Notes under the pieces: generated by a model
What the model saw: the letters and a program-made list of their open reading frames with translations, nothing else
What the model was told of the DNA's origin: nothing
Databases searched by the model: none
Origin: an uncultured Eubacteriales bacterium
GTDB taxonomy: Bacteria; Bacillota_A; Clostridia; Lachnospirales; Lachnospiraceae
Assembly: GCA_902803345.1 (NCBI GenBank)
Contig: CADCPV010000140.1
Location: 1 to 7,505 of the forward strand
Reading direction: 5' to 3'
DNA length: 7,505 bases
Part shown: positions 3,861 through 7,453 of the stretch, one piece after another
Layout of the letters: each line of letters opens with the position of its first letter
Numbering within the stretch: the first letter of the stretch is position 1
Position numbers and translations under genes: made by a program

Positions 3861-3905
3861 AGCACCCGTCATGAGAAATGCTTCGCATTTCTCATGACGG
3901 GTGCT
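3861..3905. other. Perfect 20-21 bp inverted repeat (hairpin) after azlD
   Basis: Bases 3861-3880 are the exact reverse complement of 3886-3905, around a CTTCG centre. The outer C and G of the centre can also pair, giving a 21-bp stem with a 3-nt loop. It begins 3 nt after the azlD stop. On the plus strand no U-tract follows (GGACTTG), so it is not a classic terminator for the azl operon. On the minus strand the hairpin is followed by TTATTATAAT, a loose U/A-rich tail. It could stabilise the operon's 3' end, act as a minus-strand terminator, or be a copy of a dispersed palindromic repeat. Confidence 0.85.
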
Positions 3906-4095: not shown

Positions 4096-4127
4096 AAAAA
4101 ACCGGGAGATCAGATCTCCCGGTTTTT
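4096..4127. terminator. Bidirectional intrinsic terminator between azlCD and tRNA-Gln
   Basis: ACCGGGAGAT (4101-4110) pairs perfectly with ATCTCCCGGT (4114-4123) across a CAG loop. A run of A at 4096-4101 lies on the left and a run of T at 4123-4127 on the right, so each strand has a GC-rich stem followed by a U-tract. On the minus strand it lies 2 nt past the end of tRNA-Gln and ends that transcript. On the plus strand it is the first convincing terminator after azlD. Confidence 0.9.
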
Positions 4128-4405: not shown

Positions 4406-6610
4406 ATGACTAAGAAACGGGAAAACACGGAAATCAGGGAAGGATCCCTGGAAGAAGCAGTACTTCTGCAGGAAGAAAAACAGCAGAATGCGCAGGACAC
4501 CCGCTATGTTTCTTCGGAATTCATGAGCGAAAAGAAGGCGAAGAAAGCGAAAAAAGCAAGTCCGCAGTTCTTTGAGAACCGGGAGCTTTCCTGGCTCCGC
4601 TTCAACGAGCGCGTGCTGGAGGAAGCGGAGGATCTCTCGAATCCGCTGTGCGAGCGCCTGAATTTCCTGTCTATTTACCAGACCAATCTGGATGAGTTTT
4701 TCATGGTGCGCGTAGGTTCTCTGTATGACCAGAAGCTGACCAACAACAACATCCGTGAAAACAAGACCTATATGAGTCCGGAAGAGCAGATCCAGGCTGT
4801 CTGCAAGCGTGTAAAAAAGCTTTCGGTGCGGCACGCGGAAGCCTACCGGATCCTGGTGTCGGGCCTTCGGGAGTTCGGTGTGCGCGTTACGGATTTTGAC
4901 TCGCTGGAGAAGAACGAAGCTTCGTATTTAGAGACCTTCTTCACGACCAATGTGCTGCCGCTTCTGTCGCCGGTCGTCGTCAGTAAAGAGCAGCCTTTCC
5001 CCTTCCTTGAAAACGGAAGCCTGTACGCTTACTGCACGCTCAGAAGGAAAGGGGAGAAGGACAGGATCGGCATTGTCGGATGCTCAGTGCGTTCATTAAG
5101 CCGCCTGATCCAGATTCCGGCGCACAGAAGGGCTTACCTTTTATTAGAGGATCTGGTGCTGCATTTCCTGCATCTCGTGTACCGGCGTTATGAGATCGCG
5201 GAGTCTTCAATCATCCGCCTCACAAGAAACGCGGATATTGATGCGGACAGTATGTACGACGAAGATCTGGACTACCGCGAACTGATGGAGCAGATGATCC
5301 GTTCACGCCGGCGGCTTTCGCCTGTCCGTCTTGAATACAGCCGTCCGCTTCAGAAAAAGTCGCTGGAGCGCCTGTCTCAGATGCTGAGCCTGGACCCCGC
5401 GCAGATGTTTTTATGCAAGGCACCACTGGAACTGTCGTTTTTATCACAGATGCGTTCGGACCTTTCAGGTGATGCGGAGCTGTTCTATGAAAAGCGCCAG
5501 CCACAGCGGTCTGCGGCGCTGGATCATGAGCGTCCGGTGCTTGACCAGGCCGAGGAACGCGATTTTCTGTTCTATTATCCCTATGAGCGCATGAACCCGG
5601 TAATCCGGATGCTTTTGGAGGCCGGGAAAGACCCGGATGTCGTATCAATCCGGATGACGCTGTACCGGCTTGCGAAAAACTCGCAGATTGTTGCGGCGCT
5701 TGCGGCGGCAGCGGAAAACGGGAAGAAAGTCGATGTGCTGGTGGAACTGAAGGCGCGTTTTGACGAGGAGAACAATATTCACTGGACGCATACCCTCGAA
5801 GACGCCGGCTGCAATGTGCTGTACGGACTTGGCAAATACAAAGTGCATTCGAAGCTCCTTCTGATCAAGCGGAAGAAGGACGGTGTGATGCACTACTTCA
5901 CCCAGGTCGGCACCGGGAACTACAACGAAAACACAGCCCGGCTCTATACAGATTTCTGCTTCATCACCGGACGGGAGAAGATCGGCATGCAGGCGGACCG
6001 GGTTTTCGACGCGCTGTTCAGCCAGGTTCTCCCGGATGATATCGAGGAGCTTCTCTGCGCACCGCACTGCCTGCAGAACCGTGTAATTGAAATGATCGAT
6101 CAGGAGATTGAGGAAGCGCGCGCCGGAAGGTCCGCCTATATCGGTCTGAAACTGAATTCGATCACGGACCGCGACATCATGCTGAAGCTTGCAGAGGCTT
6201 CCCAGGCAGGCGTCCGGATCGAAATGGTGGTCCGGGGCATCAACTGCCTGCGCGCCGGAATGCCGGGACTTACGGAAAACATCCGCGTGATCAGTATTGT
6301 CGGCCGCTTCCTGGAGCATGCACGGATCTATATTTTCGGAACACCCGAGCGCGAGAAGGTGTACATTTCCTCCGCGGACTTCATGACGCGGAACACCTTA
6401 AAGCGTGTGGAAGTCGGCGCGCCGATCGAGGACCCGGATCTCAGAAAGAAAATCCATCACATTTTCGATACGCAGCTTCGGGACAATGTAAAAGCCCGCG
6501 AGCAGCGGCCTTCCGGCAGTTACCGGAGAATCCTCCGCATGGCGGGCGAAGAGGAAATCAACTCGCAGGAGCTTTTCTATCGGGAAGCTTACGAGGGAAT
6601 CCTGAATTAA
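4406..6610 (+). CDS. ppk1: Polyphosphate kinase 1 (PPK1)
   Basis: This enzyme reversibly transfers the gamma-phosphate of ATP onto a growing polyphosphate chain through a phosphohistidine. The 734 residues cover the N domain (FENRELSWLRFNERVLEEA, from about 56; NLDEFFMVRVGSL), the H domain, and two phospholipase D-like C domains. The phosphorylated histidine is His481 in YKVHSKLL and the second active-site histidine is His638 in EHARIYIF. Their spacing of 157 equals that of E. coli His435 and His592. Arg421 (TLYR) and Arg451 (KARFDEEN) match the E. coli metal/phosphate-binding Arg375 and Arg405. The protein is longer than the usual 690-720 because of a charged N-terminal extension of about 50 residues that ends in KKAKKAKKA (43-51). 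It has its own promoter and ribosome site, is not in an operon with the tRNA, and converges on a phosphoesterase gene. Confidence 0.97.
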   Translation: MTKKRENTEIREGSLEEAVLLQEEKQQNAQDTRYVSSEFMSEKKAKKAKKASPQFFENRELSWLRFNERVLEEAEDLSNPLCERLNFLSIYQTNLDEFFMVRVGSLYDQKLTNNNIRENKTYMSPEEQIQAVCKRVKKLSVRHAEAYRILVSGLREFGVRVTDFDSLEKNEASYLETFFTTNVLPLLSPVVVSKEQPFPFLENGSLYAYCTLRRKGEKDRIGIVGCSVRSLSRLIQIPAHRRAYLLLEDLVLHFLHLVYRRYEIAESSIIRLTRNADIDADSMYDEDLDYRELMEQMIRSRRRLSPVRLEYSRPLQKKSLERLSQMLSLDPAQMFLCKAPLELSFLSQMRSDLSGDAELFYEKRQPQRSAALDHERPVLDQAEERDFLFYYPYERMNPVIRMLLEAGKDPDVVSIRMTLYRLAKNSQIVAALAAAAENGKKVDVLVELKARFDEENNIHWTHTLEDAGCNVLYGLGKYKVHSKLLLIKRKKDGVMHYFTQVGTGNYNENTARLYTDFCFITGREKIGMQADRVFDALFSQVLPDDIEELLCAPHCLQNRVIEMIDQEIEEARAGRSAYIGLKLNSITDRDIMLKLAEASQAGVRIEMVVRGINCLRAGMPGLTENIRVISIVGRFLEHARIYIFGTPEREKVYISSADFMTRNTLKRVEVGAPIEDPDLRKKIHHIFDTQLRDNVKAREQRPSGSYRRILRMAGEEEINSQELFYREAYEGILN

Positions 6611-6624: not shown

Positions 6625-6643
6625 AAAAACCGGGACCGGTCCC
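6625..6643 (-). terminator. Likely 3' end / intrinsic terminator of the phosphoesterase transcript
   Basis: The minus strand reads GGGACCGGTCCC, then GG and a run of five T (6629-6625). The T-run pairs with AAAGACT just after the phosphoesterase stop when the long helix forms, as in A-tract/U-tract terminators. Alternatively the 12-nt self-palindrome can form a very small local hairpin. Either way the U-tract makes this the natural transcript end. The plus strand has only AGTCTTT after its last arm, a weaker end for ppk. Confidence 0.55.
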
Positions 6644-6797
6644 ATCGGATTCACATTCATCCCAAAACTCGCCTGCGAGATGGTACTGCCCCTTCGGTGA
6701 CGGTTCCAGGTCACCTCAGGAGCAGCACCATTACCCTCGGCTCGGGGTTTTCTCTGAATGTGATAGTCTGAATCCGATAAGACCGGTCCCAGTCTTT
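6625..6797 (-). ncRNA. Unrecognised structured RNA between convergent ppk and phosphoesterase genes
   Basis: On the minus strand this 173-nt stretch folds by eye into an ordered structure. Helix P1 pairs 6797-6769 with 6625-6653: 29 continuous bp including four G·U pairs. After an 8-nt bulge (6768-6761), CATTCA/TGAATG (6760-6755 with 6654-6659) and then AAAA/TTTT (6751-6748 with 6664-6667) continue the stem to a junction. The junction holds a small hairpin (6747-6734), a 14-bp helix P3 (6731-6718 with 6693-6680, two G·U pairs), and a CTCG-CAGG-CGAG hairpin (6679-6668). P3 continues through a GA/GA internal loop into GGTGAC/GTCACC with an 8-nt loop. All six wobbles in P1 and P3 would be A·C mismatches on the plus strand, so the RNA is read from the minus strand. 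It starts at the last base of the phosphoesterase stop codon and I see no -10 box just upstream, so it is probably the 3' end of that mRNA. It matches no riboswitch, 6S, SRP, tmRNA, RNase P or T-box signature that I know. Confidence 0.7.
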
Positions 6798-7453
6798 CAA
6801 CGCTCCGGCTCCTTGATCTTGGGGAGGCGGAGCTTTTTGGAGCATTTCCTGAGCCACTCGTCGGGATAGTCCAGTTCGTAGGCCTCGTAGGCGTTGATGA
6901 CGGTCGTATCCTTGTAGTGGTCGAGACGCTTATAACCGCTGGAATAGTCCTTATGGTTGTGGCCGTGGATAAAATAGCGCGGCGAATACTTGTCCATCAG
7001 CGTCAGGAATTCCTTAAAACCGCGGTGCGGCAGGTCCTCGCTGTCGTTGAGGCCGAAGGCCGGGGCATGCGTAAGCAGGATGTCGAAACCTTTGTTCCGG
7101 CGAATGGAAAAACCTGCCCTGCGAATTCTTCTTCGCATTTCCTTCGGGGAATACATATTGATGCCGTCTTTGTAGCGCATCGATCCGCCGAGGCCGAGGA
7201 TCCGAAGCCCTTTATAATTTACGACCGTTCCGTCGATCGGGATGCAGCCCTCCGGCGGGGTCTTTTCGTAACAGTCATCGTGGTTTCCGTGGACGTAGAG
7301 CACCTCGGTTTTGCACATGGTCGCAAGGAAGGACATATAATGCGGATGCAGGTCGCCCGCACCCAGGATCAGGTCGTATTTATCGAGCATGCCCGGCTCA
7401 AAAAAGTCCCAGATTTTGCGGGATTCGTGGTCGGCGACAATCAGGATCTTCAT
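6797..7453 (-). CDS. Calcineurin-like metallophosphoesterase
   Basis: This 218-residue protein has most of the calcineurin-type metal site: Asp8 near the N-terminus (VADHES), Asp34 in GAGDLHPHY, GNHDD (56-60), THAP with His129, and GHNH (164-167). The usual first motif DxH reads Asp8-His9-Glu10, so the normal histidine ligand is displaced. I recall similar ADxES starts in Clostridia relatives, so this may be a family trait and not a defect. Members hydrolyse phosphomono- or diesters; the substrate here cannot be told. No signal peptide or membrane segment is seen, so it is probably cytoplasmic. The start ATG (7453-7451) has GGAGG (7464-7460) at 6 nt. It converges with ppk, and its stop codon touches the base of the structured RNA at 6625-6797. 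A link to polyphosphate is only suggested by position. Confidence 0.88.
   Translation of the reverse strand: MKILIVADHESRKIWDFFEPGMLDKYDLILGAGDLHPHYMSFLATMCKTEVLYVHGNHDDCYEKTPPEGCIPIDGTVVNYKGLRILGLGGSMRYKDGINMYSPKEMRRRIRRAGFSIRRNKGFDILLTHAPAFGLNDSEDLPHRGFKEFLTLMDKYSPRYFIHGHNHKDYSSGYKRLDHYKDTTVINAYEAYELDYPDEWLRKCSKKLRLPKIKEPER

What the first reader, a model, noticed from the sequence alone, without database searches (positions are those of the whole stretch)
6625..6797. Possible new structured RNA class between ppk and a metallophosphoesterase gene
A 173-nt minus-strand segment that is almost the whole gap between two convergent genes folds into a 29-bp closing helix, a bulge, a multi-helix junction and a long internal arm. 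Nearly every base from 6625 to 6797 has a partner or a defined loop. That is far more order than a simple terminator needs. I cannot match it to any RNA family I know. Its place at the 3' end of a phosphoesterase mRNA, facing ppk, makes a regulatory or sRNA role plausible.
Basis: partly seen in the sequence, partly recalled or inferred. Interest (0 to 1): 0.78.

Follow-up and report, generated by a model that had tools for sequence, protein, structure and literature searches.

The report
Dispersed palindromic repeat inside a hairpin
The striking fold between the two genes is two nested things: a long hairpin at the shared end of both genes and, in its loop, one copy of a small palindromic DNA repeat found scattered through a few related genomes, which looks like a new family of a known kind of bacterial repeat rather than an RNA switch of these genes.

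Summary
The fold is real: 173 nt, -103.2 kcal/mol, z -12.1, no Rfam match at E <= 1. But it is composite and unbranched. Its inner part (6662-6748, minus strand) is one copy of an ~87-nt imperfect palindrome dispersed in three related genomes (51 places, 11 of them a second family with the same apex). The outer helix (6625-6659/6755-6797) folds alone as a -56 kcal/mol terminator-like hairpin; no homologue was found in the loci held. Across 28 copies the inner helices covary strongly (15 of 23 pairs change on both sides; 0 of 500 shuffles). Against a gene-specific RNA: the closest relative found, L001, lacks the repeat in the same gap, and of four sites shared between genomes two hold it in opposite orientation, this phosphoesterase's 3' end among them. 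Copies lie behind genes: of 33 with both neighbours called, 15 convergent, 18 co-directional (7 sense, 11 antisense), 0 divergent. Best reading: a new, lineage-restricted REP/BOX/ERIC-like mobile palindromic repeat in the loop of a terminator-like hairpin. The mobilising enzyme is unknown. A G-U bias (18:4) leaves some selection on the RNA strand possible.

The parts
6662..6748 (-). copy of the dispersed ~87-nt palindromic repeat (family 1)
   Evidence: model R1 match 98.7 bits over all 87 positions (the window copy is one of the 28 rows the model was built from); BLAST matches in G001, G002 and G009
6730..6744 (-). left end motif CGAGCCGAGGGTAAT
   Evidence: nearly invariant columns of alignment A1, 28 copies
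6668..6681 (-). right end motif ATCTCGCAGGCGAG
   Evidence: nearly invariant columns of A1; the fourth base of the motif varies in several copies
6680..6731 (-). main stem (6718-6731 with 6680-6693) and apical hairpin (6710-6715 with 6696-6701, loop 6702-6709 CUGGAACC)
   Evidence: fold; covariation in helices 2 and 3 of A1
6755..6797 (.). one arm of the outer hairpin, with an 8-nt bulge at 6764-6771
   Evidence: fold; flanks joined without the repeat fold at -56.3 kcal/mol; no homologue in the loci held
6625..6659 (.). other arm of the outer hairpin; on the minus strand it ends in GGTTTTT and includes a terminator-like site
6797..7453 (-). calcineurin-like phosphoesterase gene, upstream of the segment on its strand
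   Evidence: PF00149 and PF12850 above the curated cut-offs
4406..6610 (+). ppk, convergent neighbour
   Evidence: four PP_kinase domains

Best explanation
The 173-nt fold is a composite. A terminator-like hairpin at the shared 3' end of two convergent genes carries in its loop one copy of a small, dispersed palindromic repeat of about 87 bp. The repeat has two fixed, partly complementary ends, a fast-changing but self-complementary stem and a conserved apical hairpin (shown). Its spread over many intergenic sites and its different orientation at shared sites fit a non-autonomous mobile element of the REP/BOX/ERIC kind (inferred). It is tolerated behind genes and, when transcribed, folds into a hairpin that may end or stabilise transcripts arriving from either side (inferred). 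Stem pairing is kept at least partly at DNA level, by arm-to-arm template switching or recombination between end units (inferred; one site, L013 against L034, fits), with possible added selection on the element strand.
For: Dispersed: 54 model matches at E <= 0.01 in G001, G002 and G009, 3 of them second-strand hits, so 51 places (11 belong to the second family). Strong covariation, 28 rows. Same gap in L001 without the repeat. Shared sites: 2 of 4 in the same orientation, 2 of 4 opposite. Never between divergent genes among 33 copies with both neighbours called; convergent gaps enriched, 15 of 33 against 2 of 42 other gaps in the same loci, p 4e-5; counting tandem pairs once 12 of 28, p 1.4e-4. 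In co-directional gaps 7 sense, 11 antisense. The flanks of the window copy alone form a -56.3 kcal/mol hairpin. At one shared site L034 lacks the stretch between two left end units that L013 has, which leaves arms that are exact complements at the ends.
Against: No transposase with these ends was found and no target-site duplication was shown. In the main stem, wobbles that pair on the element strand outnumber the reverse 18 to 4 (p 0.004), which hints at selection on that strand, though the events are not independent and the coarser count gives 29 to 40. Two of four shared sites keep the orientation. That the outer hairpin came first is not shown.
Confidence: 0.72

Rival explanations
1. A real structured RNA class: the element strand is transcribed and folded, and its RNA is selected for a function (sRNA, 3'-end protection or protein binding); the copies are mobile carriers of it.
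For: Strong covariation; G-U against A-C in the main stem 18:4; fixed ends and apical loop; the minus strand folds better than the plus (-103.2 against -81.0 for the 173 nt, -46.4 against -38.1 for the core).
Against: No preferred orientation to genes (7 sense, 11 antisense); opposite orientation at two of four shared sites; wobble counts not independent and reversed in the coarser count; template switching can give the same covariation.
Confidence: 0.14
2. The whole 173-nt structure is one bidirectional terminator or 3'-end element of this gene pair, and the similarity of its inner part to the repeat is a late addition without consequence.
For: Convergent genes; outer arms with A and T runs; terminator-like sites on both strands (3 found, shuffle mean 0.6); by reading, L001 has another inverted repeat before six Ts in the same gap.
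Against: Two of the three terminator-like sites come from the repeat's own left end; inner and outer parts have different histories.
Confidence: 0.08
3. Family 1 is a REP family served by the RAYT-size Y1 proteins of these genomes.
For: G002 encodes Y1 proteins of 253 aa (L068) and 251 aa (L069); that this is the usual RAYT size is recalled.
Against: Both lie beside other palindromes (GGGGACAGGTTCC and GGGGACGGTTCTTTTGTCTC types), and no family 1 copy was found in the five Y1 loci. G001, with the most places, gave no Y1 match (draft genome).
Confidence: 0.04

Closest known systems
REP elements of the GTAG and CGTC superfamilies, BIMEs and REPINs (PMC3733652: abstract and passages read)
   Same: Dispersed intergenic palindromes, mainly between convergent and co-directional ORFs, often in pairs or clusters; REP dimers lodged inside longer palindromes are described there.
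   Different: About 87 nt instead of 20-40; no unpaired GTAG or CGTC tag at one end of family 1; longer stem; [quoted passage not shown] no RAYT link seen here.
BOX, RUP and SPRITE repeats of pneumococcus (PMC3049150: passages read)
   Same: Small dispersed repeats with extensive predicted RNA folds, over-represented between convergent genes, thought mobile; BOX has modules present in varying number.
   Different: BOX modules vary inside the element, whereas here end motifs recur outside the core; no sequence relation was tested.
ERIC and other MITE-like repeats
   Same: Long imperfect palindrome, intergenic, presumed mobile, able to act on the transcripts it joins (background passage of PMC3049150; size of ERIC seen only as the RU-1 figure in the listing, otherwise recalled).
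   Different: No sequence relation tested; no target-site duplication or parent IS shown here.

Membership tests
GTAG REP | unpaired GTAG motif at one end of a 5-13 bp stem (PMC3733652) | tested here: not met
   The ends of family 1 are CGAGCC...GGCGAG and pair with each other; the conserved columns hold no GTAG tag
CGTC REP | unpaired CGTC motif at one end of an 8-9 bp stem (PMC3733652) | tested here: not met
   Absent from family 1. Family 2 often has GTCCG after its 3' arm, but its stems run to 30 bp and more
REPIN with RAYT | RAYT gene flanked by the same repeat | tested here: not met
   PF01797 searched in 6 genomes: 5 matches, in G002 and G009; no family 1 copy in those five loci, about 1.5 kb each side where the contig allowed
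MITE | terminal inverted repeats shared with an autonomous element | tested here: inconclusive
   The ends are partly complementary; with up to 1 mismatch, every left end found in G001, G002 and G009 lies in an ~87-nt copy, in one interrupted copy or in one truncated copy, so no larger element with these ends was seen; draft genomes
MITE | target-site duplication | tested here: inconclusive
   Flanks were read for the copies and no shared duplication was seen; no exact empty site is held
   window at E <= 1; eight further loci at gathering scores, with no match at a repeat copy
   Met for the inner helices, mostly among copies within genomes; no homologue of the outer helix to test

The most novel reading that the evidence does not exclude
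Family 1 and family 2 are products of one unknown system that recognises the shared apical hairpin (GGNGACCTGGAACCGTCNCC-like) and builds or rebuilds locus-specific, self-complementary stems around it, adding head-to-tail copies at a set distance (103-105 nt period in five pairs). That would be a way for bacterial palindromes to spread that is distinct from RAYT/REP transposition.
Probability: 0.15. Interest if true: 0.75.

Novelty: new member of a known kind. Interest (0 to 1): 0.42.

Why it matters
It defines a palindromic repeat family in a little-studied group of gut and rumen bacteria, and shows that a striking intergenic fold with excellent covariation can be a dispersed palindrome rather than an RNA of the neighbouring genes. 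Copies with quite different arms that still pair, evenly spaced tandem pairs, arrays of end motifs and two families sharing one apex make it a natural test set for how palindromes keep their pairing (selection on RNA against template switching in DNA) and for what moves repeats without an evident partner transposase.

Tried and rejected
Gene-specific cis-regulatory RNA of ppk or the phosphoesterase: rejected on absence in L001 and opposite orientation in L002. Multi-helix junction: not in the minimum-energy or centroid fold. Phage, plasmid or virus origin: no match with the window segment in phages, with one G002 copy in plasmids, or with an exact two-end pattern in viral contigs; these tests are narrow. 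RAYT mobilisation: no copy in the five Y1 loci. Autonomous element with the same ends: none seen. Four right ends of G002 away from scored copies (C16, C26, C106, C39) were read: three are lone right motifs near gene ends, the fourth lies near the interrupted copy L095. Pairing flanks as a rule of insertion: with 60-nt flanks the window copy has 42 cross-flank pairs and z -8.4; the other 35 copies have 0-37, and those with strongly negative z have 0-11 cross-flank pairs, their stability coming mostly from hairpins within one flank (mononucleotide shuffles, 60 per copy).

Weak points: the gene caller was trained on the window's seven genes, so its recovery of those genes is no independent check (it shortens one start), and it misses genes; for L012 a gene that reads as AraC-like ends just before the copies, so that site is probably convergent rather than '--'. 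A first, cruder caller gave 15 '+-', 9 '++', 6 '--' and 4 '-+' of 34. The family search scored only 11 candidates per genome, so 2 of 397 is a lower bound. Wobble counts are not independent; the coarser count, which includes fixed bulges, gives 29 element-strand wobbles against 40 reverse in family 1, and 18 against 15 in family 2. The left array pattern over whole genomes is not above its control (40 matches against 69). The tandem pairs are not all independent: the L012 and L014 spacers look alike, and L002 and L023 share an insertion in one copy. Of 59 matches, 36 were used as family 1 and 11 as family 2; 12 were dropped (7 second-strand hits and 5 others: L095, L096, L097, L100 and an array match in L024).

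No paper on this repeat was seen in those listings, which does not show that none exists. Read: PMC3733652 outline, abstract and passages; PMC3049150 passages. Others were seen as listings or starts of abstracts only.

Full report
What was checked. The window holds, in order, a RelA/SpoT-like fragment (named by reading, not searched), a metallo-beta-lactamase-fold protein, a radical SAM protein, AzlC, AzlD, tRNA-Gln (minus strand), ppk and, on the minus strand, a calcineurin-like phosphoesterase. The 173-nt gap segment folds on the minus strand at -103.2 kcal/mol, z -12.1, 0 of 200 shuffles as stable; the other strand gives -81.0. No Rfam family matches it at E <= 1. The fold is one long unbranched arm with bulges and internal loops, not a junction.

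The inner part is a dispersed repeat. No whole genome is held for the window. The phosphoesterase led to seven related contigs, titled Clostridiales, Lachnospiraceae (four), Lachnoclostridium and Clostridiaceae, at 53-86% protein identity. BLAST of the gap hit 2 of those 7 genomes, with query positions 47-142 of 186, and 3 of 61 in a wider set. The copies typically read CGAGCCGAGGGTWAT, a variable stem, an apical hairpin often with TGGAACC in its loop, the complementary stem, and ATCTCGCAGGCGAGTT. A covariance model from 28 copies, the window's included, gives 54 matches at E <= 0.01: 27 in G001, 23 in G002, 4 in G009. Three are second-strand hits, which leaves 51 places; 11 of the 25 in G001 belong to a second family described below, and a few others are weak. 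In the genus of G001, 3 of 15 genomes have it. In a sample of the family 2 of 397 do, a lower bound because only 11 candidates per genome were scored.

Covariation. On alignment A1 (28 distinct rows, aligned by sequence alone) 93.8% of cells pair, 15 of 23 pairs have changes on both sides, and the covariation score is 0.530 against 0.198 for shuffles (0 of 500 reach it) and 0.079-0.124 for slid versions. The rows are mostly copies within genomes, so this is largely covariation among paralogues, and it concerns the inner helices only.

The outer part. The flanks of the window copy joined without the repeat fold at -56.3 kcal/mol (mononucleotide shuffle mean -25.5, sd 3.7). Over the 36 family 1 copies the window has the most cross-flank pairs, 42; the others have 0-37. 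Its minus-strand 3' arm ends in GGTTTTT and includes a terminator-like site. A search of the arms against the loci then held gave one 13-nt match at E 0.26. I read it as the terminator-like hairpin of two convergent genes into whose loop the repeat went; the order of events is inferred. REP dimers inside long palindromes are described in other bacteria (PMC3733652, passage).

Position and orientation. With a codon-usage gene caller trained on the window's genes, 33 of 36 copies had both neighbours called: 15 convergent, 18 co-directional (7 sense, 11 antisense), 0 divergent. The 42 other gaps counted in the same loci were 2, 34 and 6. Convergent gaps are enriched, p 4e-5 per copy and 1.4e-4 counting tandem pairs once. 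A cruder caller gave 4 divergent of 34. Four sites are shared between genomes: L013/L034 and L008/L109 in the same orientation; L030/L017 (pyrF-pyrE gap, named by reading) and window/L002 (phosphoesterase 3' end) in opposite orientations. L001, the closest relative found (86%), has, by reading, ppk facing the phosphoesterase across a short gap with no repeat and an inverted repeat before six Ts. A strand-specific regulator of these genes should not behave in this way.

DNA or RNA. In the main stem, pairs that wobble on the element strand outnumber the reverse 18 to 4 (two-sided p 0.004, identical arms counted once). Several are shared states, so the true weight is smaller, and a coarser count that includes fixed bulges gives 29 to 40. 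At one shared site L034 lacks the stretch between two left end units that L013 has, and its left end is now the exact complement of its right end, as recombination or arm exchange in DNA would leave it. Template switching is reported to create and maintain hairpins (PMC8794818, title and start of abstract). I hold both forces possible.

Unusual features. Five head-to-tail pairs have periods of 103-105 nt; the spacers of L012 and L014 look alike, the others do not by eye, and L002 and L023 share an insertion, so the pairs are not all independent. Beside eight copies the left motif CGAGCC recurs with periods of 42-50 nt, 13 instances among 40 matches of a pattern that over whole genomes is not above its control of 69. 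The right motif recurs with periods of 18-25 nt: 10 instances in G002 and G009, 0 in the control; nine lie beside a copy and one at a contig end. One copy, L095, is interrupted in its apical part by a palindrome of the GGGGACGGTTCTTTTGTCTC type. G001 also holds 11 long hairpins with nearly the same apex, GGAGACCTGGAACCGTCTCC, but quite different stems.

Mechanism. Most likely the repeat is a passenger DNA that spreads by an unidentified enzyme, is tolerated behind genes, and in RNA adds a hairpin that can strengthen an existing transcript end. Shown: dispersal, structure, covariation, position, orientation differences. Inferred: mobility, nesting order, effect on transcripts. Unknown: the enzyme. 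Two Y1 proteins of 253 and 251 aa in G002 lie beside other palindromes, and no family 1 copy lies in the five Y1 loci.

Verdict. Observation partly confirmed, interpretation partly supported. It is a new member of a known kind, the dispersed palindromic repeats of bacteria; it does not meet the tests for the GTAG or CGTC REP superfamilies, and a functional RNA role for the element strand is not excluded.

Noticed in passing
L101, L102, L103, L104, L105, L106, L107, L019, L111, L098, L099 (all G001): Second repeat family: near-perfect hairpins of about 30 bp or more with almost the same apex as the window repeat (GGAGACCTGGAACCGTCTCC), unrelated stems and often GTCCG after the 3' arm.
   Followed up: partly
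L095 1514-1632 minus (G002): A family 1 copy interrupted in its apical part by another palindrome, GGGGGACGGTTCTTTTGTCTC..., the kind that lies beside the Y1 gene of L069.
   Followed up: partly
L068 1465-2226 and L069 1111-1866 (G002): Two Y1 transposase-like proteins of 253 and 251 aa beside their own, different palindromes; possible RAYT/REP pairs in Lachnospiraceae.
   Followed up: no
L024, L016, L021, L032, L093: Arrays of the repeat's end motifs beside copies: left motif every 42-50 nt, right motif every 18-25 nt.
   Followed up: partly
window 3861-3905: Perfect 21-bp hairpin with a 3-nt loop after azlD. A 22-nt stretch of it matches L023 exactly and a 19-nt stretch matches L001 at 95%: perhaps another small repeat.
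   Followed up: partly
window 4097-4127: Perfect 15-bp hairpin ending in a T run on the plus strand and beginning with an A run, next to tRNA-Gln: a likely bidirectional terminator. The weak Rfam hit sraA there is far below its gathering score.
   Followed up: no
L002 629-782 minus: Clostridiales-1 RNA (RF01699, 111.9 bits) in a related genome.
   Followed up: no
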